In this document: positions 3,592 to 27,671 of the stretch, piece after piece
Layout: every line of letters starts with the position of its first letter
Numbering within the stretch: position 1 is the first letter of the stretch
Assembly (NCBI GenBank): GCA_012270555.1
Contig: JAAXIC010000031.1
Span: 121,350 to 185,349 of the forward strand
Length of the DNA: 64,000 bases
Reading direction: 5' to 3'
DNA from: Chloroflexota bacterium
GTDB lineage: Bacteria; Chloroflexota; UBA11872; VXOZ01
Made by a program: the position numbers and the translations under genes
Notes under the pieces: generated by a model
The model's database searches: none
Told to the model about the DNA's origin: nothing
Seen by the model: the letters and a program-made list of their open reading frames with translations, nothing else

Positions 3592-4929
3592 CTACTCTCC
3601 GGCTGCTGCCGTTTCGCGCGCGAGTTCCACGGCGGTATCGACGAAGAGTTTCTCAGCGTCACCTGAGTATCCTGACGGCGTCTGTGACCCGTGGCGATAG
3701 GCCATGACTTCGTAGCCGCCGTAGGGTATTGCATCAGCTGTCGGCACGTAGCCGATCATGCCGTTGGCGAGCTCGACGTGCAGCGCATCTAGGCCCAATT
3801 CGGCCTTCACGCGTTCTTGGACTGCCAAGCCATACTCGAGGAAGACTTCCCCCGGGTAGCTGGCAAAGACCAGGTTGCCCACCCGGATCACTTGGATTTC
3901 CGCCGTGGGCTCGAGGAGCAATGTGTCGGATTCGTACTCTGCGACGCGGTTGCGTACCCACTTCAAAGAGTCGCGGCTGATGCGTTCTCCCGTATCGGGC
4001 CAAGTCTCAGTTTCAAGCGCTTGCTTGTAAAAGGAGGCATCGGGAACCTCACGTAAAGGGATGGTCACCACGCGCTGGGCTACGGCCACACCTTCGAGTG
4101 GGGCGCACTCGATTGACTCGCGCGCGCTTACCACTTCGGCGCCCAAGCCGCGCCAGACGCTCTCGAGTTCTTCAAATGTGGCGGAGCGAAAGCGGCTGCC
4201 GTCGCTGGTGAAATTGGGCCGAGTGTTGCCGCAGCAGCCCAGCAAGAAGGCCGCAGTGTGGTCCTCGCCATAGGTATGCTCGACAAACGTCTTGGCGCCG
4301 CCCGCGTAGTCGGCGCTGAAGGCGTAGTTCGAAGCGCCCATGCTCGTTGAATGGCAGGCATAGTGGAACGCGGTGGCCAACGGCGTGCCATCCTCGGCAT
4401 CGAAGCGGAGCACGGCAACGGTATGATCGACGACGCCGTCAGGATTGGCACGCATTTCGGTCTTGCCGTCCGTGGTAAGCCGTCGGTTTACGGCCAGCGG
4501 GAAGGAGCCCGCACCCAGACCGCCAACAGCAGTCTGCAAGCGTCGATTCGCCACCTGCACACCACCTGCCAGCTTGCGCTCGAGTTCGCGCATGTAGGCA
4601 TTGTTGAATGGCGCGTCATACCGCCACTCTCGCGTCGTTGGGCCTGAGTGCGTGTGGGAGCACGTGATCATCACATGGCTGCCGGGTATGTCGGTCTGCT
4701 CCTCAACCAACGCGCGCACTGCGGCAGTGCTCTCTTCGGTAATGCCGACCAGATCGCACGTGACGATGGCAGCCTTCGTCTCACCATCCGAAAACACCAG
4801 AATCTTCGCATAGAGGTCGTCGTGAATGTCCTCCGCCCCATGGTCGCGCGCGCTGTAGCCTCCCATCCACGTACCGACGGAGGGCGTTATGTTTATGCTC
4901 GCCGCTCCCAACTGCACTTGGTTCGCCAT
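3592..4929 (-). CDS. Neutral/alkaline ceramidase N-terminal-domain-like protein
   Basis: 445 residues resembling the neutral/alkaline non-lysosomal ceramidase N-terminal family: an early AASINITPSVGTWMGGY segment, then CDLVGI and the zinc-site motif ITCSHTHSGP (88-97, with H92 and H94). There is no convincing signal peptide, and the C-terminal immunoglobulin-like domain of true ceramidases is absent, so the substrate is not assigned; many short members in environmental bacteria are uncharacterised hydrolases. It lies 55 bases upstream of hpt on the same strand and may share a transcript. Confidence 0.72.
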   Translation of the reverse strand: MANQVQLGAASINITPSVGTWMGGYSARDHGAEDIHDDLYAKILVFSDGETKAAIVTCDLVGITEESTAAVRALVEEQTDIPGSHVMITCSHTHSGPTTREWRYDAPFNNAYMRELERKLAGGVQVANRRLQTAVGGLGAGSFPLAVNRRLTTDGKTEMRANPDGVVDHTVAVLRFDAEDGTPLATAFHYACHSTSMGASNYAFSADYAGGAKTFVEHTYGEDHTAAFLLGCCGNTRPNFTSDGSRFRSATFEELESVWRGLGAEVVSARESIECAPLEGVAVAQRVVTIPLREVPDASFYKQALETETWPDTGERISRDSLKWVRNRVAEYESDTLLLEPTAEIQVIRVGNLVFASYPGEVFLEYGLAVQERVKAELGLDALHVELANGMIGYVPTADAIPYGGYEVMAYRHGSQTPSGYSGDAEKLFVDTAVELARETAAAGE

Positions 4930-4990
4930 GACATGTTCCTCTCTTTCCCGTTTTTGCTTGTGCTCAGCAGTTACGTTGCAACTCCTGACC

Positions 4991-6142
4991 CTAGTTTGCA
5001 GGATATTTTGCTGTCGTGCCAGTGTACTCTAGCTTGAGGGAAGCCGCGCAGAAATCGGCTACGTCCGCCGCGCGGCTTTCGATTGCGGCGCGTTGGGACC
5101 GGGAGAGCTGGCCGAAAGGCTCTACCGAAACCTGCAAGGTCTTGCCTCGCTGCCGGTGGGACCACACCCCGGCAATACGGCCGTTGATCAGTACAACCGG
5201 AGAAATCCAACCGGCCGCGCGGTACACGCGCTTGTAGTGGGCGTCGTCTATGAGGTGTGACTTGCTACGGTGTCCGAGTAGGTAAACGTCGAAGTGCGGC
5301 AGCAAGCGCACATCCTCGGTAGCAAGCGCCGCTTCCCGTAATATGTGCAGATCACGCTCAAGGATGGCGGCCTGACTTCCCTCAATATCGACGTTGCACA
5401 TCTCAGCTTGCAGCCTGCCCCAGATCCGGGAAGCGTCCTTGACGGCCAGGCCCGCCCAGGCGGCAAAGTCTTGCACCGTAGCAGGCCCATAGGCCCGGAG
5501 GTAGTGCTTCAGCAGCAAGTCTTCAGCCATTTCTCCTGGAATGTCTTCCCAATCCTTCAGCCATTGGTCGCGTCGCACAAACGTTGCTTCCTGACCCTGG
5601 TTCGGACCGAGGCAAAGGTTGCCCTGCAAGCAGACGTACTTGCCTAGCCCGCCCCAACCGTGCTCGAGCAACTCCTGGATCTGCGGGGCATCGTTGCGCA
5701 GACGCGGCGAGATAGCCTGTGAGACTTCGCGGCGGGTCAGCGGAGCAGCGCTCAGGGCCGTGAAGATGGCGTCTGCCATGGTCTCGATGGCGGCGGCATC
5801 CACACCAAACCGCGCCATCCAGCGCTGTTCCTGCTTCAGCCGATACGGTTTGAGCGCAGCCACGTATAGAGGGAGTTCACGCGCAGAGAGCACATGCAGC
5901 GTGCCGCGCATGCACCAGACTTTCACGAGAGTGCGGTCCTGCCAGAGTGCCCGTTCGATCTCCGGGGCAGTGAGGCCGTGAATTCGTGTCCGCAGCGCCA
6001 ACTGGGCGGCAGACATGACCTGCGCTTGCATACCGCACGTTGCGCTGACGACATCGAGCAGGTTACCTGCTGAGGCAGGCTGTCCGAGAAAGTGGCGCTG
6101 GAGCCGAAAGGCATGTACCTGAGACCACGTTACGCTACTCAT
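4991..6142 (-). CDS. Winged-helix AlkZ/YcaQ-like protein (possible DNA glycosylase)
   Basis: 383 residues of the HTH_42 / AlkZ-YcaQ superfamily. The family's WCMRGTLHVLSARE motif is present near residue 96. A Q-A-Q triplet (39-41) in GMQAQVMSAAQLALRTRI fits the QxQ catalytic signature described for AlkZ-type glycosylases that unhook bulky alkyl adducts. The family also contains uncharacterised members, so glycosylase activity is inferred. The ATG at 6142 has no strong ribosome-binding site. No biosynthetic cluster that would need self-protection is visible nearby. Confidence 0.75.
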   Translation of the reverse strand: MSSVTWSQVHAFRLQRHFLGQPASAGNLLDVVSATCGMQAQVMSAAQLALRTRIHGLTAPEIERALWQDRTLVKVWCMRGTLHVLSARELPLYVAALKPYRLKQEQRWMARFGVDAAAIETMADAIFTALSAAPLTRREVSQAISPRLRNDAPQIQELLEHGWGGLGKYVCLQGNLCLGPNQGQEATFVRRDQWLKDWEDIPGEMAEDLLLKHYLRAYGPATVQDFAAWAGLAVKDASRIWGRLQAEMCNVDIEGSQAAILERDLHILREAALATEDVRLLPHFDVYLLGHRSKSHLIDDAHYKRVYRAAGWISPVVLINGRIAGVWSHRQRGKTLQVSVEPFGQLSRSQRAAIESRAADVADFCAASLKLEYTGTTAKYPAN

Positions 6143-6200
6143 ATCGCAAAGCCCTTTTGCGCTAGCGTAAATCCGGGGAGAAAGCGCTCAAAAGCGAGAA

Positions 6201-6229
6201 GCTGCGTGCTACCCAAGGGAGCACGCAGC
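6201..6229 (-). terminator. Hairpin terminator after the Asp-box repeat gene
   Basis: A perfect 10-bp inverted repeat (GCTGCGTGCT / AGCACGCAGC) with a 9-nt loop lies 55 bases past the stop of the 6284-8269 gene. On the minus strand it is followed by a pyrimidine-rich tract containing CTTTT, which fits factor-independent termination. Confidence 0.55.
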
Positions 6230-6283
6230 CTTTCAGTTATCGCAAATGTGTGGGTCACACCAGACTACCAAGCGCCAAACGTA

Positions 6284-8269
6284 CTAGGCGTCGATATAGC
6301 GCCAGACGGTGCCGCCCAGCGAGACGGCCCACACCGCGTGGTCTTCGGCGTAATTGGGTGAAACCAGCAAGGAGACGATTGCCTTGTTGTCCAGCCCTTC
6401 ATTGATGTTTTGCCACGTAAGCCCTTCGTCAGCGGACTTGTAGACACCCCGGCTGGTGCCGGCATAGATCGTCGTATCCTCTTCATAGTTAGGGGAAATC
6501 GCCAAGCAAACTACCGCCGCGGTAGCCTCGCCGATGGCATCGCCGACCCAGAGATTCTTGCCGCGCCACATGGGGCGGAAGAAGCGCGTCGCCGTGGCAA
6601 TGAAGAAGTTGCTGTAGTCCTCGTCTGTACCCGAGTAGTTCGGCGGCATGGCGAAGCTAATCCACTGCGCTCCCGTCGCGTGAACGAGAATGCGCTTCCA
6701 GATTTCGCCGCCGTCGGCGGAACGCCACACGGTAATGGTGCTCGCGTAATCGCCTTGGGAAGCACGGAAGGTACCCAGCAGAAGGGTATTGTCATCAGCG
6801 AAATTCGGTGAGAGCGCTACGCCGATCACGTCTTCCTCGCCAAACGTCTCTTCGGCCCTTTCCCAAGATTGACCCGCGTCGCGGCTGAAGTACAACGCGC
6901 CGCCAGGCCCGCCGGCAACGACGAGGCGATCATCGGCAAAGGTGTTGGACACGGCAAGCACGCGGAGGTCTTGCGTCTCTTCGTCGATGCCCTCGTTACT
7001 GGCTTCCCAGTTCTGTCCGCCGTCGGCGGAAAGCGCGATGCCTTGGTGCGTCGCGGCAAAGACGGTCGTGTCGTTGGCATAATCCGGCGAGATCAAGAGC
7101 GATGCGACCTGCATCTCTTCCATGCCGGCGCCGGCCGGTTCCCAGGATACACCCTCATCGGTGGAGCGCAAGACGCCGTCTTCGAGACTTGTGGCAAAGA
7201 GCGTACCGTCTTGGTGGCAGTTCGGAGAAAGCGCCGTGCCCAGGAGCGAACGCGCGGCAAGGCCGGCCACGGCCGGTTCCCAATGCGCGGCGTCGCCATC
7301 GGCCCGTAGAGCGCCTTCGCGGTGTACGCCGGCTAAGACGATGTCGTCGTCACCGGTTCCCGTTGTCAACAGGCACAGCACCGACGAGTCTTGCTCGATG
7401 GCACTCTCCCAGGTCGCGCCGCCGTCGGTTGAACGGTAGATCGACCCTTCCGCGGTGCCGGCATAGGCGAGACTATCCGCTGCAAAATCGGGTGATAGGC
7501 AGAGCGCGTTGATGGATACACTATCCAGTCCGCTGTTCGCCTCCTGCCAGTTCGTGCCTCCGTCGGTAGACTTGAAGACGCCCATGTCCTCAGTACCGAC
7601 CAGAATCGTGCGGTCCTCGGCGAAATTCGGCGAAACGGCAATCGCCTGGATCGCCATGCTATCGAGCCCTCTATCCACCAGCCGCCACGCGCGGCCCTCG
7701 TCGAGCGTTCGATAGAGGCCGTCGCCGCCCGCTATGAATGCGGTCTGATCTTCCGCAAAGTCCGGCGAGATGGCTACGGCCTGAATGCTCAACTCCATGA
7801 TGCCGAAATTCGCCGAATTCCAGGTACGGCCGCGATTTGTCGACTTGAACACGCCGTCTTCCTGTGTGCCGGCCAGCATCACACCATCGTCGGCGAAGTT
7901 CGGCGAAACGGCCAGGCACGTCACAGAAGCGGCGCCCTGCCAGAAATCAAGTTGCTGCCAGGTCTCACCGCCGTTATCAGAACGATAGACGCCGCCCTCC
8001 AAAGCGCCTGCAAATGCTACTTCATGGTTCGCAACGTTGGGCGCGAAAGCGAGCGCCTGGATGTAAGGGCTCGTGATGCCTTCGTTGGAAATCTTCCACG
8101 TCTTGCCCCGATCTTCGGAGCAAAACACTCCGGCCATGGTACCGGCCAGTACCAGGTTGTTTTCGTTAAAGCTTGGCGAAACGGCAAGTGACGCAACTGT
8201 GCCACCAAGGCGCTGCCCAACCACCTCCCATGCTTGCTTTTCCATCACTGTCGGCCCGGACGTACTCAT
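6284..8269 (-). CDS. Asp-box (BNR/sortilin-like) beta-propeller protein
   Basis: 661 residues built almost entirely of about 50-55-residue repeats. Each has a core like LAVSPNFAEDxTxLAGT followed by an Asp box (SxDxGxTW), for example SDNGGETW, STDGGATW, SADEGLTW. I count eleven good Asp boxes and one degenerate copy (RADGDAAHW), enough for one large or two stacked propellers, similar to Ycf48/VPS10-type folds. No signal peptide is visible at the N-terminus, so it may be cytoplasmic or exported otherwise. No catalytic sialidase residues are recognisable; the role is unknown, perhaps protein or glycan binding. Confidence 0.75.
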   Translation of the reverse strand: MSTSGPTVMEKQAWEVVGQRLGGTVASLAVSPSFNENNLVLAGTMAGVFCSEDRGKTWKISNEGITSPYIQALAFAPNVANHEVAFAGALEGGVYRSDNGGETWQQLDFWQGAASVTCLAVSPNFADDGVMLAGTQEDGVFKSTNRGRTWNSANFGIMELSIQAVAISPDFAEDQTAFIAGGDGLYRTLDEGRAWRLVDRGLDSMAIQAIAVSPNFAEDRTILVGTEDMGVFKSTDGGTNWQEANSGLDSVSINALCLSPDFAADSLAYAGTAEGSIYRSTDGGATWESAIEQDSSVLCLLTTGTGDDDIVLAGVHREGALRADGDAAHWEPAVAGLAARSLLGTALSPNCHQDGTLFATSLEDGVLRSTDEGVSWEPAGAGMEEMQVASLLISPDYANDTTVFAATHQGIALSADGGQNWEASNEGIDEETQDLRVLAVSNTFADDRLVVAGGPGGALYFSRDAGQSWERAEETFGEEDVIGVALSPNFADDNTLLLGTFRASQGDYASTITVWRSADGGEIWKRILVHATGAQWISFAMPPNYSGTDEDYSNFFIATATRFFRPMWRGKNLWVGDAIGEATAAVVCLAISPNYEEDTTIYAGTSRGVYKSADEGLTWQNINEGLDNKAIVSLLVSPNYAEDHAVWAVSLGGTVWRYIDA

Positions 8270-8584
8270 CGATTCTCCTTCCTGATCGAATCACGCTCAT
8301 GTTCTATAGAGTTTTGCGTATCGAGACTGCTTAGTCTTTAGGATGCCCCTACTCTCACGCGCCGTGAAACGCGTGAGGCTGAGTAGAGATACTCTCCGCA
8401 GCAAGTCCTGAAATACACGACTAAACCGCGCCCTCATCAAGGGCGCGCAGTAAATAGCCGCTTGGTATATTACTGTAATGCTACCAGACCTTCAAGACAA
8501 ACACGAACTTCGCGCCATTTGGGCAGCATTTCGCATGCCGTTGAACTATACGAGGCTCTTTATGCGCGTTGCGTCTCGTGCACT
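8270..8584. other. Intergenic region with two perfect hairpins
   Basis: No gene is visible. An 8-bp palindrome CTCACGCG/CGCGTGAG lies at 8354-8377 and another, CGCGCCCT/AGGGCGCG, at 8427-8447. Neither is followed by a convincing T-run on either strand. The region separates the divergent 8269 start from the duplicated comM leader. Confidence 0.5.
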
Positions 8585-8836
8585 GGAGCTTGCAGTTAGC
8601 CCTATCTCTTCGTACCCTTAGAGGGGCAAATGCGATTTACTATTGCCATGCAATGGAGACTTGAGTGCTCGCGAAGATTTCGGCGGCTACGTTAGTCGGG
8701 TTCGAAAGTGCGCAGGCGGAGGTTGAGGTCGACCTCACCGACGGTCTGCCGTCATTTGTCATCGTGGGTTTGCCTGACACGGCTGTGCAAGAAGCGCGCG
8801 AGCATGCGCGCGGCCATTCGAAGTGCGGGCTTCAGT
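8585..8836 (+). repeat. Diverged duplicate of the comM leader and 5' coding region, copy 1
   Basis: About 250 bases resemble 10699-10950. The first block (GGAGCTTGCAG, then TCTCTTCGTACCC) and the start codon are exactly 80 bases apart in both copies. Similarity continues through about 165 coding bases and fades near 8836. Differences are scattered, so the duplication is not recent. Confidence 0.8.
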
Positions 8837-8838
8837 AG
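8665..8838 (+). pseudogene. Truncated comM 5' fragment
   Basis: From the GTG at 8665 the frame encodes the ComM N-terminus (LAKISAATLVGFESAQ, then DGLPSFVIVGLPDTAVQEARE) almost as in the complete gene at 10779. A 2-base deletion after the ARE codons shifts the frame, and TAG follows at 8836. A ribosome-binding site (GGAG at 8655-8658) is retained, so a roughly 57-residue peptide could be made, but the ATPase domains are absent. Confidence 0.8.
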
Positions 8839-8968
8839 CCTGCCTGGCGTACTGCACGCAGGTGCAGTAGAGCGGATGAGCCGCCCGCCGGTATGGTCTG
8901 TCGTCTATGATGCAAAGTGCAAATCAACCTGGATTGACCGTTTTTGGGCAGACTACAGGAGCGCCAAC

Positions 8969-10531
8969 GTGAAGGTATCCAACGTCAACACCCATAACAT
9001 CAGGGCGGCCATCGAACTTGGATGCAGGACGATGTCAAATGTGTTCAACGCCGATGACAACGACATCCCCTTCTTCGGGTCCGAGGTTCTCCCCAATCCC
9101 CGGCTCAGCTTCAGCATGGTCCACTCCGAATCTCATGTGCCGGGCAGGCACCTGAACGCCCTGCTGAATGCCGAAGACGCGGCTGGCGTCTCGATCTCGG
9201 AAGAGGTGATCGAGAAACACGCCGCAGCGGCCTTCTTCTCATATTCCGGCCCCGTGCCTCTGCCCATGAACCGCGACCGCGTGGACGGGCCCATCGAGAA
9301 CTTCAACGATCACAACGTGCGTGAGGGAATGCATGCCCTTTACGCCCTGGTCAAGTATCGAAACTCCGACATGGCGAGGGAAGTGGCCGAATCCAGCATT
9401 GAGTTCATCCTCGATGCGTGGGACCCGACGAACGGCTGGGACCGGGAAGGGATAACGAAAAACCACGGGATCCGCTGGACCCGGGAAACCACGTTTATTA
9501 CGGGCATCGGCCGCGCCATCGGCCCGCTGGTCAAGTACTACCGGGCCACCGGCTCGGGTAAGGCGCTCGAACTGGCGTCTCTGCTGGCGGAGAAGGCTAC
9601 GTCCGAGTTCTTTTTGCCGGACGGATCGTATGACCGCGAAAAGTTCGGCGTACACACGCACTCGACGACCTGCGTCATGTCCTCGCTGGCGCAGCTTGCG
9701 GATCTGACCGGCGACGCCGCATTGCTGGAGCGCGTACGGGCCTTTGCCGACAACGGGCTGTGGGAGATCCGCGACGAATTGGGCTGGGTGATTGAGAGCA
9801 GCGCCGACGACGTCCCACCTGACAAGGGAGAAGGCAACAACACCGGCGACATCGTCGAAACTGACCTGATACTCGGCCGGCACGGCTATCCCGGGTACTA
9901 CCAGGACGCCGAAAGGATACTGCGCGGGCACCTGTTGCCGTCCCAACTGCGCGACGTGGATTTCGTCCCCAAACCTGCCAATCCAGCAGACGAAGATGGT
10001 CTGAGAAGAGTGAGGGAACGGCACCTCGGAGCGTTCGGGTTTCCGGCGCCTTACGGCCACCGCCCGCTTGGGCTTGAGCGGGTCAGCTTCAACATGGACA
10101 TAGTCGGCGGGGTGGTCGGCACCCTCTGCGAAGTTCTCAGGGAGGGCGTCGTGAAAGGGCCCGATGGCGTACGGGTGAATCTGCTGTTGGACCAGGACAC
10201 GCCGGACGCGCGGGTGGAGGCGGGCACATCGTCAGGCCGCGTAAGCGTAACGACCAGACACGCGGCGCCACTTTGGATCAGATTGGCGCGGTGGGCCGAC
10301 AGGGCGTCGTTGCAGGTCAGGGGGGCGGAGGACTATCGGTTCTTGGGAGACTACCTGCTCGTCGCCCAACCTGAACCGGGCAAACCGATTTCACTGGAAT
10401 ACCCGGCGGCACGGACTGACATTGTGCTCGCTCACCGCACGCGCAACATCAGGACGGTCCTGGAAGGAGACGCGGTGGTGGCGATGGAAAACTTCGGCGC
10501 TGACTTGACGTTTTTCGACCTGCTCGACTGA
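8969..10531 (+). CDS. Putative (alpha/alpha)-barrel glycosidase-like protein
   Basis: About 520 residues. Alternating helical segments with aromatic and acidic residues (for example RWTRETTFITGIGRAIGPL, EGITKNHGIRW, HTHSTTC), followed by a beta-rich tail (VRVNLLLDQDTP to the end), recall six-hairpin glycosidases of the GH127/beta-L-arabinofuranosidase type. The family is not certain and catalytic residues are not assigned. I chose the GTG at 8969 because AGGAG lies 7 bases upstream; an ATG at 8876 is possible, and codons before about 8840 would lie in comM-derived sequence in another frame. It sits alone between two copies of the comM 5' region, so it looks acquired. Confidence 0.5.
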   Translation: MKVSNVNTHNIRAAIELGCRTMSNVFNADDNDIPFFGSEVLPNPRLSFSMVHSESHVPGRHLNALLNAEDAAGVSISEEVIEKHAAAAFFSYSGPVPLPMNRDRVDGPIENFNDHNVREGMHALYALVKYRNSDMAREVAESSIEFILDAWDPTNGWDREGITKNHGIRWTRETTFITGIGRAIGPLVKYYRATGSGKALELASLLAEKATSEFFLPDGSYDREKFGVHTHSTTCVMSSLAQLADLTGDAALLERVRAFADNGLWEIRDELGWVIESSADDVPPDKGEGNNTGDIVETDLILGRHGYPGYYQDAERILRGHLLPSQLRDVDFVPKPANPADEDGLRRVRERHLGAFGFPAPYGHRPLGLERVSFNMDIVGGVVGTLCEVLREGVVKGPDGVRVNLLLDQDTPDARVEAGTSSGRVSVTTRHAAPLWIRLARWADRASLQVRGAEDYRFLGDYLLVAQPEPGKPISLEYPAARTDIVLAHRTRNIRTVLEGDAVVAMENFGADLTFFDLLD

Positions 10532-19464: not shown

Positions 19465-22252
19465 CTAGTCCTGTATAACCCTTGCGAGGCCGGCAGCGAT
19501 CATCGTGTATTCTACACGCACCCCTCTCTTGGACTCTTCCTCTTCAATTCGCTCATCGCGACGCCTCCTGGAGTTTCGTATTTGTGATTGACGCATTCTC
19601 TTGATGCGCTCCTCAGTGATCGGCATGAGTTGACGCCGGAGATTCTCTATATGTGAACTAAAGTGTCGATCCAGGCTGGCAATGCGTACATCGATCAGGG
19701 CATCATTATACTGCCTTTCAGACACTTCTTTGTCTTGCCTAACACTCGACGCATAGTTGTCAGCTGCATCCTGAAGTTGCAGGAATCTGCCCTCTTCAAT
19801 TTCGACTTCTGGCTTTCTATCGCCTTGATCACTTGGTAATTCCTTCAAGAACACCTTGGAATGAAATGGTTGAGGGTCAGAGTCATCAGTGGAGACAAGG
19901 ATAGGGACCAGAGTGCATTGGGGAGTAGCCGAGTGAATATCAAACCGGTAGAGAAAAAAAGCGAAGTCCCCATGGGGTGTCTCAGAACTTCGATCAATCC
20001 ATAGTGCGGTCTTGGGAATCCGGCGACCACCAGTCTTCCTAAAGTGAGCCAGTGCGGCTTGTGCCAACGGATGGTGCAAGGTCACGAACTCAATGTTTCT
20101 TCTCTTGGCCGTTTCAGCATCGAACGTAAGAGTCACTAGACGAGGTTCAGACTGTAGTCGTTTCAGGAATTGCTCATTCAAGGCCCTGTTTCTTTGGCTT
20201 GCCCGCGCACTTTTAACAAAGTAGTTGGCCAATTCGCTTCTTGGATAAACATAGAATGTGCGACCATCTTCACTTTGATCGAGATGCACGTGCGGAAGCG
20301 CGTCCGCAAGGAATGTCTCCACCAACGCACTGACTTCCTGGGCCGACACAAAACGGCCGGAAGATCGTATCTCCTCTATGTCGCGTTGAAGCAAGAAGTC
20401 CTGCCCCAAGAATAGGCCTTGTTCACTTTCGAATGCCTTCTGCTCTTGCCGGTGTCGTTCTAGGATTCGTACCGCGTTTTCGACCTTCAGTCTCTCCTCT
20501 TCTGCGGTTAAGCGTGCCAGGAAGATGTCGCGTGATAACCTGCTCACAACCTTACCGAGGATCGGCTCCAAGTCGCCAATTGAGGATTCGAATAGTCCAA
20601 TTCGGTTGTACAACCGCTCAAGAATACGAGTTTCGATAGTATCTTCGATTACCAGATTGTAAATCCTTATGCGCTTGTGTTGTTGTCCGAATCTATCAAG
20701 CCGGCCGATACGCTGCTCAACTCGCATGGGATTCCACGGTAAGTCATAGTTGAACATTGCGCCGCAGAACTCGAAGTCCAGACCTTCGGCGCCGACTTCT
20801 GTAGACACCATTATCTTCAGGTCGCTGCGATCTCGGAACGCGTCAATCCGGCGTTGTCTTTCTTCTAACGAGATCTGGCCGTGAATAGTCTCTACGGCGA
20901 GTCCTTCGCGAGTTAATCGGTCGAATAGATATTGAGCAGTACCACGGAAGAAAGAGAACACCAGCACTTTACAACTTGGGTCATCATCGAAAAGATGGCT
21001 GAGTGCTTTCTTGAACTCGTCGTACTTTGTGTCCTGGCTACCTAAATTCTCGCAGAGTCCAAGTAGCTCGGTAACTTGCTGACGATCGGTGCCAGTAAGT
21101 TGGCGGGCAGAAACATCATCTTCTCTGATGTCCGGATCTGTCATTTCGAGGTCTAATCCAATACTGGATGACTTGAGTGAGCGCTCAAAGTGTGCCTTTA
21201 GCGCCTGAATGCAACTTGCTGCCTGCCGTTCTCGTATGATTACTGCAAAAATCGAAATCTCGCCTGTGCCTTTTCGCTGGGAGTGCTGCCAGCGAACGAA
21301 GTCATCGACGGCATCGTAGAACTTCCTTTCTTCATGGTTTAGCTTCACTTCAATAGTAAAGGGGCTGCGCTTGGCAGTATCGGCTTGCACATCTCTCTTC
21401 CTAGTACGATTGAACACTCTGGCTAGTGTGTGGAGTTCTAGCAAGTCCCTCTCTACGCTGACTATCTCTTCATTACTTGGAGCGCCTTTTCGCCCTAGAG
21501 ATTTCATGGCTCTGCTATAAGTGGGGTTACTTGGATACATTTTCCCAAAGAGAGTGGACTCTACTGATCTTAATTCACGCCGCGCCCTTGAGAATCTACC
21601 CTGCGAAGCCAATCGAGACGCTCTGCTTATGAACATGTTCGGTCGAAGTCTCTCTTCGAAGTCCTCGAATCGTTCAAAGTCACCGGCGTCAATGAGCCGC
21701 ATCAAATTGAATAAATTCTCATTGCCTGTCTGTAGTGGAGTAGCAGAAAGAAGTACTAGAGCGTGCGATGGCTCGGTTATTGTAGTTGCAAGTGCAAATG
21801 ATTTTGTTGTTGGATTCCTCAGATGATGCGCTTCGTCAATGACTATCAGGTCAAAATCGACAGCTTGTTCATCAAGTTTTCCCCGAAATTCATCTCTGCG
21901 GAGCATCTCCAGCGAGCAAATGCCGCGCAACCTCACCGCATCTCCTAGTTCATATTGGTCATGCAGGAATCGTCTGAAGGATGCGGCATCCAATATGTCG
22001 AATTCTTCATCGAATCGAGAAATAAGCTCGCGGCGCCACTTCTCTCGAAGCCCGGCAGGGCAAATCACCAAGACTCGCTTCAAGTCACGGCGCGCAGATA
22101 GCTCTCTGTAAATCAGGGCTGCTTCTATCGTCTTTCCTAGTCCGACCTCATCCGCTATCAGAATGCGTTGGTTAGGTGACTTGAGGAATCTCAACACCGG
22201 TTTAAATTGGTAGGGATAGTATTCGATACGCGATGCGCCCAGCGAATACAAA
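19465..22252 (-). pseudogene. SNF2/RapA-type helicase, C-terminal part (interrupted by transposon)
   Basis: About 926 residues of a RapA/HepA-like SNF2 ATPase: Walker A DEVGLGKT, DEAH box, LLSATPLQT (motif III), and the helicase C-domain motif QRIGRLDRFGQ. A helical C-terminal extension rich in charged residues follows. There is no proper start: the frame can open only at a TTG (22251), with an in-frame TAA four codons upstream inside the transposon end. Its missing N-terminus is at 27335-27671; joined across one 8-bp target copy the reading frame is exact (DTLY then SLGASRIEYYPYQF), giving about 1,038 residues. It may be a solitary phage-defence helicase (DISARM DrmD-like, for example), but no partner genes are visible. 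Confidence 0.85.
22245..22252. repeat. Target-site duplication, left copy
   Basis: AATACAAA directly outside the left transposon end. It is identical to 27335-27342. Eight bases is the duplication length known for the IS1595 family. Confidence 0.9.
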
Positions 22253-22277
22253 ATAAATTACACCCATTCTAACCAAA
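22253..22277 (+). repeat. Left terminal inverted repeat
   Basis: Begins AT, then ATTACACC at 22257-22264 and TAACCAAA at 22270-22277. Aligned without gaps to the reverse complement of 27310-27334, 19 of 25 positions match. Confidence 0.82.
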
Positions 22278-22286
22278 AAGGAGAAA

Positions 22287-22304
22287 CCCCCGGGATTCCG
22301 GGGG
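22287..22304 (-). terminator. Terminator at left transposon end
   Basis: Seven-bp GC stem (CCCCCGG / CCGGGGG, loop AATC), followed on the minus strand by TTTCTCCTTTTT. It closes the minus-strand transcript of the 150- and 47-residue genes and would insulate the helicase fragment from read-through. Confidence 0.8.
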
Positions 22305-22328
22305 CTTCCTAGGTTATTCGAGTGCTCT

Positions 22329-22472
22329 CTAGTCCTTGCTCTCGCCTCCACTATTGCTTCCGCTACTATCCGAAGTGCCTGTGTCAGCAGGTGGAGTTCT
22401 GTCTGGTGCTGGTGGTGGAGGAGGGGGCTTATCTCCCTTTTCGGTTATTCTTTCTTCTCTCTTGTTCTCCAT
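22329..22472 (-). CDS. Small proline/serine-rich protein (47 aa)
   Basis: Short frame from ATG at 22472. The protein is charged at the N-terminus (MENKREERITEKGDK), has a run of six prolines, then an acidic Ser/Gly tail (SDSSGSNSGGESKD). No membrane segment; probably disordered. It starts 13 bases after the 150-residue membrane protein gene stops and just before a strong terminator, so it is the second gene of a two-gene transcript. Function unknown. Confidence 0.55.
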   Translation of the reverse strand: MENKREERITEKGDKPPPPPPAPDRTPPADTGTSDSSGSNSGGESKD

Positions 22473-22484
22473 GCATCTCACTTT

Positions 22485-22937
22485 CTAGTCTGGAAGATTG
22501 ACCCATGTGAACCATAGCAGAAGCACTGCACCTGCTGCGAATCCAAGTATGGCTATGCTATTCGTAATGTCAACCATTCTACGAATCCATGTCGAAGGCT
22601 CCTTCGCATCGTCCTCATGTTCAAACCTCGTAGCGTTCAGATATACCATCTGCTGACTAACTGAAATCCGGCCAAAAGTAAATGATACCAATGCTGCAAG
22701 CAGACTAAGTGTACAAGAACCCCACGAGCCAAAGACCAGGTGTGTGTGCCCCATATCATCCCACACTCTTTGTAACAACAGAAGCGACAGTCCGACTGTT
22801 CCGCTTGACAGAAAGATGACGGTCCGGTCCCGCATGTGTCCTTGACCAGTATACATCTGGTCCAACACCTTGCGATGATCAAGCAATGCTTGGTCATGAA
22901 GGCCAATAGGGTTAGATGGGTTCTTTGTGATTGCCAT
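22485..22937 (-). CDS. Three-helix membrane protein of the transposon
   Basis: 150 residues with a charged N-terminus (residues 1-36) and three hydrophobic segments at about 39-57, 69-88 and 126-147. A polar loop with EHEDDAKEPSTW lies between the second and third. The ATG has a strong GGAGG site 7 bases upstream. It is divergent from the transposase, with which it shares a 147-base intergenic region. Not recognised; perhaps a passenger with a membrane role, like the other small membrane proteins of this element. Confidence 0.7.
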   Translation of the reverse strand: MAITKNPSNPIGLHDQALLDHRKVLDQMYTGQGHMRDRTVIFLSSGTVGLSLLLLQRVWDDMGHTHLVFGSWGSCTLSLLAALVSFTFGRISVSQQMVYLNATRFEHEDDAKEPSTWIRRMVDITNSIAILGFAAGAVLLLWFTWVNLPD

Positions 22938-23014
22938 TCTAATCCTCCAAATGTACGAATGAGATGTTTATGTAGATTATAGCAAAACAACGCCCCAAAC
23001 AAGCCAAGCCATCC

Positions 23015-23043
23015 TTGACTTTGGTCAATCTCCGTAGTATAAT
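23015..23043 (+). promoter_or_regulatory. Sigma-70 promoter of the transposase
   Basis: TTGACT at 23015-23020, a 17-base spacer, and TATAAT at 23038-23043. An inverted repeat GTAGTAT (23034-23040) / ATACTAC (23055-23061) spans the -10 box and the predicted start, a likely operator for repression of transposition. Confidence 0.78.
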
Positions 23044-23084
23044 ATGAGTATAGAATACTACACAAAAGAGATTAGGTCAAGCCG

Positions 23085-24068
23085 ATGTCAAAGAAAGCGC
23101 CAGGCAAGCACTTCCGCACTGGCATATCGCTCATCGAGTTGTCTCAGATGTTCCCCGACGATGAGACGGCGGAGAAGTGGTTTGAGGAAATGCGCTGGCC
23201 TGACGGTGTAGTCATCTGCCCCTTCTGCGAATCCAAGCGCGTGACCGAGCGCGGCAGTCACCCGAACAACCCCTACCGCTGCAAGGACTGCCGCAAGTTC
23301 TTTTCGGTTAAGACCGGCGGCATCATGCACGCCAGCAAGATTGGCTATCAGAAGTGGGCGTTTGGCATCTACCTCATGACCACAGGCATCAAGGGCACGA
23401 GCAGCATGAAGCTGCACCGCGACCTGAGAATATCGCAGAAAGCCGCTTGGCACATGGCGCATCGCATCCGCGAGGTGTGGAAGGTAGACCATGACAAGTT
23501 CACCGGCACGGTTGAGGTAGACGAGACCTACGTGGGCGGCAAGGCCAAGAACATGACGCAGGAACGCAGAGAGCGATCCGGTGTTGGGAAAGCCGGTTCC
23601 GGCAAGGCTATCGTCGTCGGAGCTAAGGAACGGGAATCTGGCAAAGTGGTGGCAAAGGTGGTCAAAGGACGCACGTACAACCACCTGGTTGGCTTCGTTG
23701 ACAAGAACGTGAAGATGGGCGCCACGGTTTACACGGATGACAACAAGACTTATCGGACCCTGGAAGTTGGGTTCACCCATGAGGTTGTGAAACACAGCGC
23801 CAACGAGTACGCTCGCGGTGACGTGCACACCCAGGGGATTGAATCATTCTGGGCGAACTTCAAGCGCGGCTACCGAGGCGTGTATCACCACATGAGCCCA
23901 AAGCATCTCCAACGCTACGTAAACGAGTTCTCCGGGCGGCATAATGACCGCCCATCTGATACTAAAGTCCAGATGAATAACATAGCGAAAAACATGCTTG
24001 GTAAGCGATTGCGGTACGAGGACTTGATAGCAGACGAGGATAACAAACGTAAAAGGAGAGATGGGTGA
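23085..24068 (+). CDS. IS1595-family (ISXO2-like) transposase
   Basis: 327 residues. An N-terminal zinc ribbon (C45, C48, C66, C69) and WPDGVVICPFC are characteristic of IS1595/ISXO2 transposases. The catalytic domain shows VEVDETYVGG (D146), VYTDDNKTY (D218 or D219) and GIESFWANFKRG (E253 candidate). Length is normal and no frameshift is seen, so the enzyme may be active. The ATG overlaps no other gene and follows a consensus promoter; the TGA overlaps the start of the next gene. Confidence 0.95.
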   Translation: MSKKAPGKHFRTGISLIELSQMFPDDETAEKWFEEMRWPDGVVICPFCESKRVTERGSHPNNPYRCKDCRKFFSVKTGGIMHASKIGYQKWAFGIYLMTTGIKGTSSMKLHRDLRISQKAAWHMAHRIREVWKVDHDKFTGTVEVDETYVGGKAKNMTQERRERSGVGKAGSGKAIVVGAKERESGKVVAKVVKGRTYNHLVGFVDKNVKMGATVYTDDNKTYRTLEVGFTHEVVKHSANEYARGDVHTQGIESFWANFKRGYRGVYHHMSPKHLQRYVNEFSGRHNDRPSDTKVQMNNIAKNMLGKRLRYEDLIADEDNKRKRRDG

Positions 24069-24277
24069 TGAGCGATTCTGAGGCACCTGTTGAACATATC
24101 GCGCCCTTGGACGAGAGACTAGTGCGGCGTGAATTCAGAAGGCTTGGTATAGCTGATGGTGGCAAGTACGCCAACATGTTCAGAGAGGCGATACGAGACG
24201 GTCGGAAAAAGGCCAAGGCTTCAAACGTCAAAGAGCGCAACAAGGAAGATCGCGCTGACGACGCCGAGAGCAGCTAG
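24068..24277 (+). CDS. Small basic protein coupled to the transposase
   Basis: 69 residues from an ATG that shares its A with the transposase TGA (TGATG); a GTG one codon earlier is also possible. It has an acidic N-terminus, then a basic stretch (RRLGIADGGKYANMFREA, RDGRKKAKASNVKERNKED). It is soluble and probably helical. The overlap implies coupled translation, so it may assist or regulate transposition. I do not recognise the family. Confidence 0.6.
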   Translation: MSDSEAPVEHIAPLDERLVRREFRRLGIADGGKYANMFREAIRDGRKKAKASNVKERNKEDRADDAESS

Positions 24278-24291
24278 GCTATCCCAAACGT

Positions 24292-24322
24292 CAGTCTCCC
24301 AAATCACCAACTTGGGAGACTG
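24292..24322. terminator. Hairpin between convergent passenger genes
   Basis: Perfect 11-bp stem CAGTCTCCCAA / TTGGGAGACTG with a 9-nt loop, placed 15 bases after the stop of the 69-residue gene. Only short T-runs follow on either strand, so termination is plausible but not certain. Confidence 0.5.
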
Positions 24323-24439
24323 GCAACTAACCTCCCGCCTTTTAATGGGTAAGGATCGTGAAGGCGCCTCTCAGCCCCTCAGCCGGCCCGGCTACCATCT
24401 CTAGCAAGAGCGAATATATATTCGGGCGTCCTATCCACT

Positions 24440-24646
24440 TTATTTGCCCCTCTCGTCTAAGTTCCTAAGATGCGAGAGTATCTCTTTCAGAAGATTGCGA
24501 ATCTCCTGCAAGGTCACTGTGTCACGGATGGCCGCCTCTTCGGGACTGTTAGGCACGTATATGCCCTTTGAGCGGAGGCGCTCCTCTATCTCGTCGATGG
24601 ATTCTTGACCGCTCACGAAACTGCTACCTTTAGGTTGTGTCGTCAA
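24440..24646 (-). CDS. Small acidic passenger protein (68 aa)
   Basis: Starts at a TTG that overlaps the TGA of the preceding gene (TTGA). The sequence contains an IDEIEERLRSKGIYVP segment and a C-terminal amphipathic helix (TLQEIRNLLKEILSHLRNL), suggesting a coiled-coil or partner-binding protein. The codon pattern is protein-like. Function unknown. Confidence 0.5.
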   Translation of the reverse strand: MTTQPKGSSFVSGQESIDEIEERLRSKGIYVPNSPEEAAIRDTVTLQEIRNLLKEILSHLRNLDERGK

Positions 24647-24954
24647 CTTTTCAGGTTGCGTATTATGGCTTGATTCTTCAATGTTTGTTGTTTTGTTCTT
24701 TGCTCTTTCATTTCTTCAAGCGTTTCTTTCCCGGTCTTAGAAAGACCACCTACTGCAAACATGAACTCTCCATCATTGGTCAAATGAGGCGCGATTATGA
24801 AAAGGTCAGCATTGATGCTATCAGCTATTGCAGTTCGCACTTGGTCAAGTTTGTACTGATAGTGAGCCAGGCTGATTATCTGATGACCGCCTTCAAGCCG
24901 GTCCACAGTTTCAAGCAACTCAATTACAAGGTTGGTATGGTCGTCAGAGTTCAA
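24643..24954 (-). CDS. Passenger protein of unknown function (103 aa)
   Basis: The start is a TTG with AAGGGAG eight bases upstream. There is no membrane segment; the protein is mixed alpha/beta with a hydrophobic strand DLFIIAPHLTNDGEFMFAVGG and a basic helical tail (ETLEEMKEQRTKQQTLKNQ). It is first gene of a two-gene overlap operon with the 68-residue protein. Its 5' end lies close to the divergent RNA-gene promoter at 24979-25007. Not recognised. Confidence 0.55.
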   Translation of the reverse strand: MNSDDHTNLVIELLETVDRLEGGHQIISLAHYQYKLDQVRTAIADSINADLFIIAPHLTNDGEFMFAVGGLSKTGKETLEEMKEQRTKQQTLKNQAIIRNLKS

Positions 24955-24978
24955 GTTAACTACTCCCTTACAGAGCTA

Positions 24979-25007
24979 TTGCCAACTTCCTGTGATTGTG
25001 GTATACT
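24979..25007 (+). promoter_or_regulatory. Sigma-70 promoter of the structured RNA gene
   Basis: TTGCCA at 24979-24984, an exact 17-base spacer, and TATACT at 25002-25007. The predicted start is near 25013-25014. No protein gene follows on this strand before the terminator. Confidence 0.75.
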
Positions 25008-25096
25008 ATGGATGTAGCAACAAGCCAATATAGGGCTTGTTGCGGGCGAACACACGACTGGCTTTTATCTAGCTAAAGATATAGGGTGAGCGAAAA

Positions 25097-25129
25097 ATGC
25101 CATTCCTGGGACATGACTACGTAAAGTAG
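25097..25129 (+). CDS. Possible 10-residue leader ORF inside the structured RNA
   Basis: ATG to TAG encoding MPFLGHDYVK. GGGTGAG lies about 6 bases upstream, a usable ribosome-binding site, but it is buried in the GGGTGAGC/GCTCATTC stem. The stop lies in a small hairpin (CTAC gtaaa GTAG). It could be chance; if real it suggests translation-dependent switching of the RNA fold. Confidence 0.25.
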   Translation: MPFLGHDYVK

Positions 25130-25236
25130 CCACACCAGAATTGGTAAGTCTATGCGTTTCTGCATAGAGACTCCTTTCTAGCTCATTCCTTTTCCATTCT
25201 AGTGTGTTCGCCCGCAACAAATCCTATAGCTCAAAC

Positions 25237-25270
25237 GAAGAGCCAGTCTGAGACTGGCTCTTCGTCTTTT
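25237..25270 (+). terminator. Terminator of the structured RNA gene
   Basis: Perfect 13-bp stem GAAGAGCCAGTCT / AGACTGGCTCTTC with a single-base centre, then GTCTTTT on the plus strand. Confidence 0.85.
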
Positions 25271-25318
25271 GAGTATAGCATACTCCCTTTTACCCCGTGA
25301 GGCAATTGTGGGTGTTTC

Positions 25319-25453
25319 CTAGAACTTCAACCGCCTCGCCCACTCAATGACGGCTTTCCGAAACAGGAAGAGCACGCACACGCTGAAGATCAGTGCAACC
25401 ACGACCATGACCTCGGGGTGTTCCTGTATGTAGAGGATGGCTTGGTCAAACAT
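25319..25453 (-). CDS. Small single-pass membrane protein (44 aa)
   Basis: ATG at 25453 with GGAG 8 bases upstream. A short polar N-terminus (MFDQAILYIQEHPE) is followed by one transmembrane helix (VMVVVALIFSVCVLFLF) and a basic end (RKAVIEWARRLKF). The start overlaps the end of the superinfection-immunity-type gene by 8 bases, so translation is coupled. Probably works at the membrane with that protein; function unknown. Confidence 0.6.
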   Translation of the reverse strand: MFDQAILYIQEHPEVMVVVALIFSVCVLFLFRKAVIEWARRLKF

Positions 25454-25712
25454 TCTCTTTCTCCACATTCTCTTTCTCTTCGCCTTCCTGCTCTTGTCCT
25501 ACTTTTTGCACAACCGTGATATTGGTTTGTGCCTCCGTCCCAAATGCCATTATCAAGGCGATTACCCAGCCAATGATTATCCAGCCGAAGAAGAAGTTGA
25601 CGAGAGCAATCTGAACGGTATTCGACCGTTTTCGATACAGGGCAATGCCAACTGGAATGAAGTACAAACACAGCAAGAATACGAATAGGAGTATGCCGCC
25701 TATGGCTTCCAT
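25446..25712 (-). CDS. Superinfection immunity domain protein
   Basis: 88 residues from the ATG at 25712; the longer frame upstream overlaps the preceding gene and is not protein-like. Two membrane helices flank a conserved core (LYFIPVGIALYRKRSNT, then NFFFGWIIIGWVIALIMAF) matching the T4 Imm-type superinfection immunity family (Pfam Imm_superinfect). The tail is highly acidic with a duplicated EKENV. In phage T4 Imm blocks entry of superinfecting phage DNA; the role of bacterial and transposon members is not established. Third-last position in the secreted-Imm-44aa operon. Confidence 0.75.
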   Translation of the reverse strand: MEAIGGILLFVFLLCLYFIPVGIALYRKRSNTVQIALVNFFFGWIIIGWVIALIMAFGTEAQTNITVVQKVGQEQEGEEKENVEKENV

Positions 25713-25731
25713 GAGGACTGATTCCTTTCTG

Positions 25732-26514
25732 CTAACTGCAAAGTGTCTGCTGCTCGATTTTCGTGAGGTTATCCGAGAACAGCCTGGCTCTATCCAAGTG
25801 CGGGAACCACTCATTGGTTAGTCGCTGCTCGACAAGGCTTGGTTCAAGCGTCGTGGTGATTTCAACATAGACCTTGACACCATTCGTAATGTGAAAGACC
25901 CAAGCAGCGATTGGCGCATGGAACGCCTTACCCTGCCATGTGTCCGGTGTCTCGGCTATGATTATCTCCGCAGTGAAGTTGTAGACTGCGCTTTGGGAAC
26001 TGAGCCGTCTTTGCCATTCGGCAGACCCGTAGAGAGGCACGTTGCCTACCGGCTCAGATGTGATTGCGAACCACTTGTTCAGTTCAGTTTCATACCCTTT
26101 GATTGCTATTTGCATGGCTTGCACATACGCCCGGTCCTCCTGTGGGATGCACGCGATGCTCTCAGTGATGGGGGTATGGTCAACGTAGTCCGCTTCCCAG
26201 AAGTAGCGCTCGGTGTTGAGACGCCGCACAAGGCCATGAGGTCCGTTTATCCAGGTGCGGTAGCCGTCAGTAAAGGCCGTCCAGTTGTCGGCCTTGCGCC
26301 ACGCCATGAGGCCACCTGTGGTCTGCTGGTTGCTGTCGCCTATGGCGTTGTAGCGCTCGTTCTCGAGGCATTCGCCGACAATGTCGTGACCAATAAGGTC
26401 GCGCAGTGCCTTGAAGCCAAGACGGAACTCACAGTCAGCAGCGGCAATGGGAGTTGCCGTTAATAGCAGAAGGACAAAGGCAAAGAAGATCGAACGGGGT
26501 ACAAGCGAACGCAT
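25732..26514 (-). CDS. Secreted passenger protein (260 aa)
   Basis: A clear signal peptide (MRSLVPRSIFFAFVLLLL, cleavage near TPIAAA) precedes a domain with HDIVGECLENERYNAIGDS, TTGGLMAWRKADNWTAFTDG and YRTWINGPHGL, a motif I recall from secreted Chloroflexota proteins of unknown role. A second half (140-260) has no known motif. There are cysteines at C28, C49, C121 and near the C-terminus. The ATG has a strong GAGGAGG 9 bases upstream. It is the first gene of an operon with the Imm-type and 44-residue membrane proteins, 19 bases before the next start. Confidence 0.75.
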   Translation of the reverse strand: MRSLVPRSIFFAFVLLLLTATPIAAADCEFRLGFKALRDLIGHDIVGECLENERYNAIGDSNQQTTGGLMAWRKADNWTAFTDGYRTWINGPHGLVRRLNTERYFWEADYVDHTPITESIACIPQEDRAYVQAMQIAIKGYETELNKWFAITSEPVGNVPLYGSAEWQRRLSSQSAVYNFTAEIIIAETPDTWQGKAFHAPIAAWVFHITNGVKVYVEITTTLEPSLVEQRLTNEWFPHLDRARLFSDNLTKIEQQTLCS

Positions 26515-26556
26515 GAGGGTGCCTCCTCACGGTGAACACGATTAAACAATTGACTA

Positions 26557-26651
26557 GGCACAGTCAGTGTCTTAAGGTGAGCCCGCGAGGAGACCGATGT
26601 AGCATTGTTCAATCGTGTCTCCTGACTCACCTTAAGACTTTCAACTGTGCC
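26557..26651 (-). ncRNA. 5' leader hairpin of the passenger operon
   Basis: A 95-nt nested inverted repeat. The outer stem is GGCACAGT/ACTGTGCC (26557-26564, 26644-26651); the middle is a perfect 13 bp GTCTTAAGGTGAG / CTCACCTTAAGAC (26569-26581, 26626-26638); the inner is GGAGACCGAT with ATCG-T-GTCTCC (26589-26598, 26612-26622). The minus-strand promoter at 26659-26687 would start transcription at about 26652, so the operon RNA begins with this hairpin, 42 bases before the start codon region. It may stabilise the mRNA or act as a regulatory element. Confidence 0.65.
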
Positions 26652-26658
26652 TGCGTTC

Positions 26659-26687
26659 AGTCTATGAGGAAGCCCGCAAAGGGTCAA
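26659..26687 (-). promoter_or_regulatory. Promoter of the secreted-Imm-membrane operon
   Basis: On the minus strand TTGACC (26687-26682), a 17-base spacer, and TAGACT (26664-26659). The predicted start falls at the first base of the leader hairpin. Confidence 0.6.
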
Positions 26688-26730
26688 GGAACTGGAGGAA
26701 ATAACCGAAAAGGTGTCAAGAGGGATTAAG

Positions 26731-26759
26731 TTGACACGGAGAATCTGGACAGGCATACT
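26731..26759 (+). promoter_or_regulatory. Promoter of the tandem structured RNA
   Basis: TTGACA at 26731-26736, a 17-base spacer, and CATACT at 26754-26759. The predicted start is near 26766, ten bases before the first structured unit. It is divergent from the operon promoter at 26659-26687. Confidence 0.55.
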
Positions 26760-26775
26760 AAGAGCAAGCAAAGCC

Positions 26776-26927
26776 GCCAAGTGCAGGACCTTCTGTGGGG
26801 AACATCCCCCACTAGAGGCTTTCGAGCTGCACAAGGCAGAATGCCGGGCAAGAGCCGCTATCAAGCGCAGCGCCTACTGTAGAGAAATCTCTACTAGAGG
26901 TTTGGAAACCTGCGCAAGATAGCGGCT
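26776..26927 (+). ncRNA. Tandem pair of covarying structured RNA units
   Basis: Unit 1 (26776-26837) and unit 2 (26853-26927) share one plan. The basal stem is GTGCAG/CTGCAC in unit 1 and GCGCAG/CTGCGC in unit 2. The arm is GTGGGG/CCCCAC versus GTAGAG/CTCTAC. A small hairpin is GCT-TTCG-AGC versus GTTT-GG-AAAC. An AA/AA symmetric loop lies below the basal stem in both, and unit 2 adds a 10-bp outer stem (AGCCGCTATC / GATAGCGGCT). Paired changes preserve every stem, at least four compensatory pairs, so structure rather than sequence is conserved. An open frame (26713-26922) crosses it but would start upstream of the predicted transcript. Confidence 0.65.
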
Positions 26928-26985
26928 TTGCGACTCCAGTGTATCATCCCTCGGAAAGCAGAGAAACACCCGAAAAGGTGTCAAG

Positions 26986-27013
26986 TGGACTTACGCGTGT
27001 TTTGTGGTATAAT
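26986..27013 (+). promoter_or_regulatory. Promoter of the AT-hook gene
   Basis: TGGACT at 26986-26991, a 16-base spacer, and a perfect TATAAT at 27008-27013. Motif copies lie immediately upstream and 19 bases downstream, which suggests repression. Confidence 0.6.
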
Positions 27014-27096
27014 CAAGACGTGAGTTTTCATCGAAAAGGTGTCAGTAGGATTTATGGCATGGTAGTCTATAGGTACACAGAAAGGATGATGGTGCC

Positions 27097-27285
27097 ATGT
27101 CTAAATCCACCAAGTCAAAGGACGAGGACAAGTCTGAGATTCTCAGCGGTCCTCCCTCCGAGAGGCCCAAGCGCAAGCGCGGGCGACCTCTCAAAGGTCT
27201 TCCGCCCAGGATTCCCGACACTCCTGAGAACGTCGCAAAAGCTGTCGTGAGCGTCCCCCGCGACCGTGTCCCCCGCCCCGAATAA
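27097..27285 (+). CDS. Small AT-hook DNA-binding protein (62 aa)
   Basis: Highly basic centre with a canonical AT-hook, KRKRGRPLKG, flanked by acidic (DEDKSE) and proline-rich segments, then a PPRIPDTPENVAKAVV segment that I recall from other small AT-hook proteins of mobile elements. The ATG follows GAAAGGATG. It is probably the regulator of this block, binding AT-rich minor grooves such as the nearby -10 regions, or a transposition helper near the right end. The role is inferred from motif and position. Confidence 0.68.
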   Translation: MSKSTKSKDEDKSEILSGPPSERPKRKRGRPLKGLPPRIPDTPENVAKAVVSVPRDRVPRPE

Positions 27286-27309
27286 CCAGAGAAAAAACAC
27301 AAGAAAATC

Positions 27310-27334
27310 TTTGGTTATTTTAGGTGTAATCCAT
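27310..27334 (-). repeat. Right terminal inverted repeat
   Basis: Read inward on the minus strand it begins ATGG, then ATTACACC and TAACCAAA at the same spacing as the left end. 19 of 25 positions agree with 22253-22277. Confidence 0.82.
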
Positions 27335-27342
27335 AATACAAA
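27335..27342. repeat. Target-site duplication, right copy
   Basis: AATACAAA, identical to 22245-22252. Collapsing the two copies restores the helicase reading frame. Confidence 0.9.
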
Positions 27343-27671
27343 GTGTCTGACAGCGGGGAGCTAGTTTTGAGCAGGATGAACTCACGTAAGAAGACCTTGT
27401 GCGGCAGGTATTCAAGAGCCGGTCGAGTTGGGACAGCTTCTAGTTCATGCTCGCTTAGAGTTGGTTCGTCGGTAGCACTGAAGAATACCCTATAGTCAAA
27501 TCCTTCAGTACCACGAATTGGCTCTCTAATTATGAGTCCTTCGCGCGCAGGTTCTCTCTTTACCCGTACCCTGTCTCCAGGTTTGAAGAGCGGATTCTTT
27601 CCCTTTGATTGAGGTTGGGGCTTTAGAGTGGGCAATCGACTTCGTTTCTGATTGCTTTTTGTTCGTGCCAT
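27335..27671 (-). pseudogene. SNF2/RapA-type helicase, N-terminal part
   Basis: From the ATG at 27671, 112 helicase codons encode a basic leader and a small beta-domain (FKPGDRVRVKREPAREG, then YRVFFSATDEPTLSEHELE) that in this kind of SNF2 protein precedes the ATPase core. After DTLY the frame continues into the transposon for six codons (YGLHLK) and stops at 27315. The natural continuation, SLGASRIEYYPYQF, is found at the other edge of the transposon, 5.1 kb away. Alone this piece has no catalytic motif. Confidence 0.85.

What the first reader, a model, noticed from the sequence alone, without database searches (positions are those of the whole stretch)
26766..26927. Two tandem RNA-like units that keep structure through compensatory changes
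Units at 26776-26837 and 26853-26927 differ in sequence, yet every stem is preserved by paired changes: GTGCAG/CTGCAC to GCGCAG/CTGCGC, GTGGGG/CCCCAC to GTAGAG/CTCTAC, and the third hairpin likewise. Internal duplication plus compensation is strong within-sequence evidence for a functional three-way-junction fold. A promoter (TTGACA-17-CATACT) precedes it. No known ribozyme core (for example hammerhead CTGATGA) is present.
Basis: seen in the sequence. Interest (0 to 1): 0.78.

Follow-up and report, generated by a model that had tools for sequence, protein, structure and literature searches.

The report
Tandem small RNAs inside a transposon
A jumping gene in a bacterium, probably a sponge symbiont, carries two copies of a small, previously undescribed folded RNA; two more copies in a sister species keep the same fold by paired changes, so it is probably a functional small RNA, but what it does is not known.

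Summary
Two tandem units (26776-26837 and 26860-26920) share one fold: P1, a 2x2 AA/AA loop, P2, P3a and a variable apical hairpin. A covariance model from the two units found a third unit in a sister species (33 bits). The improved model found a fourth (44.6 bits); the background of those model searches reached about 21-25 bits. Over four units, 8 of 18 pairs change on both sides, none on one side only, and all cells pair. Rfam has no match. Related units differ in length by 15-16 nt, which argues against a coding explanation.

The surroundings change the reading. The units lie near the right end of a 5.1-kb IS1595-family transposon (22253-27334; 8-bp target duplication AATACAAA) that interrupts a DrmD-like SNF2 helicase gene. 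The third unit also lies inside an IS1595 element. The fourth is intergenic, with a promoter-like site before it and a T-run after it.

Most likely this is a small structured RNA transcribed from its own promoter and carried as transposon cargo. Trans-acting sRNA is my first choice, cis attenuator second. A three-way junction is possible, but its third helix has only two pairs. The family was seen in only 2 of 6 genus members and nowhere else searched.

The parts
22245..22252 (.). left copy of the 8-bp target-site duplication AATACAAA
   Evidence: identical to 27335-27342; removing the insert restores the helicase frame
22253..27334 (.). IS1595-family transposon with cargo; inverted ends ATAAATTACACC / ATGGATTACACC
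   Evidence: ends, duplication and transposase family
27335..27342 (.). right copy of the target-site duplication
23085..24068 (+). IS1595 transposase (DDE_Tnp_IS1595 and zinc ribbon)
   Evidence: Pfam PF12762 E 1.1e-42, PF12760
26731..26759 (+). sigma-70-like promoter TTGACA-17-CATACT for the RNA
   Evidence: 10/12 match; 3 sites found in the region against 0.3 expected in shuffles
26776..26837 (+). RNA unit 1
26853..26927 (+). RNA unit 2 with full P1 (model core 26860-26920)
26698..26728 (+). direct repeat copy 1 (GAAAAGGTGTCA...), just upstream of the RNA promoter
   Evidence: the exact 12-mer occurs only 3 times in the genome
26963..26993 (+). direct repeat copy 2, overlapping the promoter of the small ORF
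27024..27054 (+). direct repeat copy 3
26986..27013 (+). promoter-like site TGGACT-16-TATAAT (TG before the second hexamer) upstream of the small ORF
27097..27285 (+). 62-aa basic, GRP-containing small ORF that recurs in IS1595 elements of this genus
   Evidence: similar ORFs in L057 and L058 elements; no Pfam or NCBIfam match
25732..26514 (-). cargo: 260-aa secreted protein
   Evidence: relatives in all 6 genus members; no Pfam, NCBIfam or PADLOC family
26515..26660 (-). structured leader of the 260-aa gene with a stem over the Shine-Dalgarno site
   Evidence: z -6.3; 10-bp stem CTCCTCGCGG/CCGTGAGGAG

Best explanation
The units are two tandem copies of a small, previously undescribed structured RNA of about 46-62 nt core: P1, a purine 2x2 loop RA/AA, P2 GYGCRG/CYGCRC, an asymmetric loop with conserved CUUUCUAG, P3a, and a variable tip. 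They are carried as cargo near the right end of an IS1595-family transposon. Shown: the fold is conserved by paired changes across four units at three loci in two species; two of the loci are IS1595 elements; no known RNA family matches. Inferred: it is transcribed on the + strand from TTGACA-17-CATACT as a short RNA. Inferred with less certainty: it acts in trans as a small RNA, by base pairing through the exposed CUUUCUAG/P3 loop or by binding a protein, and the P1/P2 stem protects it (in the fourth unit it also ends transcription). The direct repeats upstream of its promoter and of the neighbouring small ORF suggest the two are co-regulated.
For: Sequence-only alignment of the units in register. 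Unseen third unit at 33.1 bits, E 4.5e-6, in G002, and fourth at 44.6 bits, E 5.3e-7; the four inspected weaker hits (G080, G004:C68, G016 and the 29-bit own-genome hit) lie inside protein genes. Double-sided changes in 8/18 pairs, none one-sided. Third unit inside an element with TIR GGGAATTATATACC and duplication AATCTAAG. Fourth unit has TTGAAA-17-TATGCT upstream and GTTTTTGTTTT right after P1 on the same strand. Window promoter on the same strand. The two G002 units fold better on this strand.
Against: No expression data. Only four units, two of them tandem in one element. None in 80 other IS1595 loci within 7 kb, or in the 4 other genus members or 34 sponge-associated genomes, so it is not part of the IS1595 machinery. 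No T-run terminator after unit 2 in the window. Unit 1 folds slightly better on the opposite strand. In the third locus a tRNA-Ser gene on the other strand leaves little room for a promoter. No target is established.
Confidence: 0.5

Rival explanations
1. Cis-acting 5' leader or attenuator: the hairpin controls the next gene on the same strand by termination or by pairing with a Shine-Dalgarno leader; the window copy would be a tandem version upstream of the 62-aa ORF.
For: In all three loci a same-strand ORF starts about 150-190 nt downstream (window ORF 27097; L057 transposase; L453 small membrane ORF). The fourth unit ends in a T-run. A G002 unit is strongly complementary to the SD leader of the L453 ORF (-54.1 kcal/mol, 0/200 shuffles; best non-unit window of about 3,350).
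Against: The three downstream genes are unrelated. In the window and in L057 a separate promoter lies between unit and gene. Neither window unit has comparable complementarity to the leader or 5' regions of its own element.
Confidence: 0.25
2. DNA-level hairpin: the units are palindromic DNA sites (cruciform, or protein-binding sites for recombination or replication) and are not functional as RNA.
For: Both strands fold about equally in the window units. Nearly all changes are full double changes, with few G-U states. The same element has other inverted repeats.
Against: The purine 2x2 loop is conserved as unpaired sequence in all four units, and CUUUCNAG in three. In the conserved helices the one wobble pair seen is on the unit strand (U-G in P1). 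Same-strand promoters in two loci and a T-run in one.
Confidence: 0.15
3. Guide RNA for transposition, similar in layout to the IS110 bridge RNA (two stem-loops with internal loops).
For: Two similar stem-loops with internal loops inside a transposon.
Against: The transposase is a DDE IS1595 type, and no IS110 transposase is in the genome. G002 has one unit per locus, and one of its loci shows no such element. 80 related transposase loci lack it.
Confidence: 0.04
4. Protein-coding repeat (69-aa zinc-finger-like frame 26713-26922) that only happens to fold.
For: The open frame exists.
Against: Related units differ in length by 15-16 nt and keep pairs, not codons; no family match.
Confidence: 0.02

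Closest known systems
Small trans-acting bacterial RNAs (sRNAs) carried by mobile elements
   Same: Short, stable stem-loop, own promoter-like site, in one case a T-run; mobile-element cargo
   Different: No expression, target or Hfq/ProQ link shown; tandem copies; no Rfam match
IS110 bridge RNA
   Same: Two stem-loops with internal loops inside an insertion element
   Different: Wrong transposase class (DDE, not DEDD); units not tied to the transposase clade; a unit also occurs with no IS1595 ends found around it
Riboswitches and attenuators (including tandem ones)
   Same: Structure conserved by covariation upstream of genes; hairpin with T-run in one locus
   Different: Downstream genes unrelated; separate promoters lie between unit and gene in two loci; no Rfam match
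IS1595-family transposons with passenger genes
   Same: DDE transposase, inverted ends, 8-bp duplication
   Different: Carries tandem structured RNA; no such case appeared in 2 literature searches

Membership tests
IS1595-family transposon | DDE_Tnp_IS1595 transposase | tested here: met
   PF12762 146 bits against cut-off 27
IS1595-family transposon | terminal inverted repeats and 8-bp target duplication | tested here: met
   AATACAAA on both sides; removal restores the interrupted frame; same in L057 and L058 elements
Structured RNA family with covariation | paired changes in independent homologues | tested here: met
   8/18 pairs changed on both sides, 100% of cells paired, 0/500 shuffles; only four units, and the alignment was fitted to the model
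Known Rfam family | score above gathering threshold | tested here: not met
   only a tRNA at 38559 in the window; nothing overlapping units of the other loci
Bacterial sRNA | own promoter | tested here: inconclusive
   consensus sites in window and L333; consensus match is not proof
Bacterial sRNA | detected transcript | not testable with these tools
   no expression data
IS110 bridge RNA | associated DEDD (IS110) recombinase | tested here: not met
   PF01548 absent from the genome; transposase is DDE
Self-cleaving ribozyme | match to a known ribozyme family | tested here: not met
   no Rfam ribozyme even at E 10; a new ribozyme cannot be excluded
Riboswitch or attenuator | conserved downstream gene class | tested here: not met
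   transposase, basic small ORF and membrane small ORF follow the three loci

The most novel reading that the evidence does not exclude
A new RNA class carried by IS1595 elements that works with the element, for example controlling transposition or the recurrent small basic protein, with the repeats upstream forming one regulon.
Probability: 0.1. Interest if true: 0.7.

Novelty: new member of a known kind. Interest (0 to 1): 0.42.

Why it matters
It shows that internal duplication inside one sequence can point to a real RNA family: the two units were enough to find two more in a sister species. DNA transposons of the DDE type are not known to me as carriers of tandem structured RNAs, so expression and function would be worth testing; patchy presence in one genus limits the reach.

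Tried and rejected
IS110 bridge RNA: no IS110 transposase in the genome. Part of the IS1595 machinery: no unit in 80 related transposase loci with up to 7 kb flanks, 1.0 Mb. Weak model hits in G080, G004:C68, G016 and the own genome (20-29 bits): inside protein genes, so background; other hits of about 18-25 bits (G162, G067, G032 and others) were not all checked for genes and are treated as background by score. DNA patterns in viral contigs: hits gave at most 19 bits with the model; the hits of a second pattern were not followed. BLAST against phages and plasmids: none. RNA-RNA pairing with the leader in G002: strong for one G002 unit, weaker for others, so a lead only. The first-look filter of the whole-genome model search missed the third unit with the two-unit model, so negative genome searches are soft.

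Full report
Observation. The two units are in the sequence as described and align in register from sequence alone. Each folds into a long stem: P1, a 2x2 loop AA/AA, P2 (GYGCRG/CYGCRC), an asymmetric loop and P3. Both fold better than dinucleotide shuffles (z -2.96 and -5.43), but the opposite strand folds about as well (z -3.31 and -6.27).

Independent test. A covariance model of the two units (R1) found no convincing further unit in 400 genomes of the phylum under strict filters (best other hit 24.5 bits). When flanks of related transposases were searched directly, it scored 33.1 bits (E 4.5e-6) at L057:8337-8382 minus, in a species of the same genus. A three-unit model (R2) then found a fourth unit in the same species on another contig, G002:C63:21412-21457, at 44.6 bits (E 5.3e-7), while all other hits in 40 genomes stayed at about 21 bits or less. 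The third unit was unseen by R1 and the fourth unseen by R2, so these are fair tests. The weaker hits that I inspected lie in protein genes.

Covariation. Over the four units, 60 of 60 cells pair, 8 of 18 pairs change on both sides and none on one side only; shuffles never reach this, and sliding the partners destroys it. The alignment was fitted to the model, which leans towards the structure; the sequence-only alignment of the two window units shows five of the double changes without that help. The proposed third hairpin has 2 bp, kept in all four with one double change, but in unit 1 it is about 2 kcal/mol less favourable than the unbranched fold. The three-way junction is possible, not shown.

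Surroundings. The 928-aa SNF2 helicase ORF (19465-22251 minus) starts at profile position 92 of a DrmD model, and its N-terminal piece is the ORF at 27315-27671 (inference from the restored frame). Between them lies an insert of 5082 bp with inverted ends and an 8-bp duplication AATACAAA; removing it with one duplication restores one open frame. Its transposase is of the IS1595 family. The RNA units therefore lie in transposon cargo, about 0.4 kb from the right end. The third unit lies in another IS1595 element (L057, about 4711-9096, duplication AATCTAAG), beside a tRNA-Ser gene. The fourth lies in an intergenic region 0.24 kb from a tRNA-Pro gene, with no IS1595 ends found. A small basic GRP protein recurs in the three elements of the genus that I read.

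Strand. The window promoter TTGACA-17-CATACT is on the + strand. The fourth unit has TTGAAA-17-TATGCT upstream and GTTTTTGTTTT after P1 on the same strand. The two G002 units fold better on this strand, unit 2 equally, unit 1 worse. So + is the likelier strand, not proven.

Mechanism. I favour a short structured RNA made from its own promoter, acting in trans or through a protein. The cis-attenuator reading is the main rival: a same-strand ORF lies about 150-190 nt downstream in each locus. One G002 unit pairs strongly with the Shine-Dalgarno leader near the other unit, but the window units show no such pairing with the leader in their own element. These steps are inference.

Distribution. No unit in 80 IS1595 loci of other bacteria, many of them probably from sponge-associated genomes, nor in 34 of those genomes searched whole (candidates partly scored). 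Two of six species of the genus have it. This is a narrow, patchy family.

Literature. Searches for IS1595 with passenger genes or noncoding RNA and for structured RNAs in Chloroflexi showed no title describing such an RNA; I did not read the papers in full.

Noticed in passing
19465-22251 minus and 27315-27671 minus: A DrmD-like (DISARM) SNF2 helicase gene is split in two by the transposon.
   Followed up: yes
26515-26660 minus; L453 about 8500-8650; L058 about 6430-6504: Strongly structured leader with a 9-11-bp stem over the Shine-Dalgarno site, recurring upstream of unrelated small or secreted protein genes in this genus; possible translational switch.
   Followed up: partly
26707, 26972, 27033: Three exact GAAAAGGTGTCA repeats, the only exact copies in the genome, near the promoters of the RNA and of the 62-aa ORF; possible operators.
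   Followed up: partly
25029-25228: 27-bp inverted arms, 93% complementary, 146 nt apart; looks like a MITE nested in the transposon.
   Followed up: no
L057:8405-8479: An IS1595 element in the sister species carries a tRNA-Ser(GCT) gene and a DNA methyltransferase as cargo.
   Followed up: partly
25732-26514 minus: The first ~118 residues of the 260-aa secreted protein recur in many longer proteins of the genus (4-14 matches per genome); no Pfam family.
   Followed up: no
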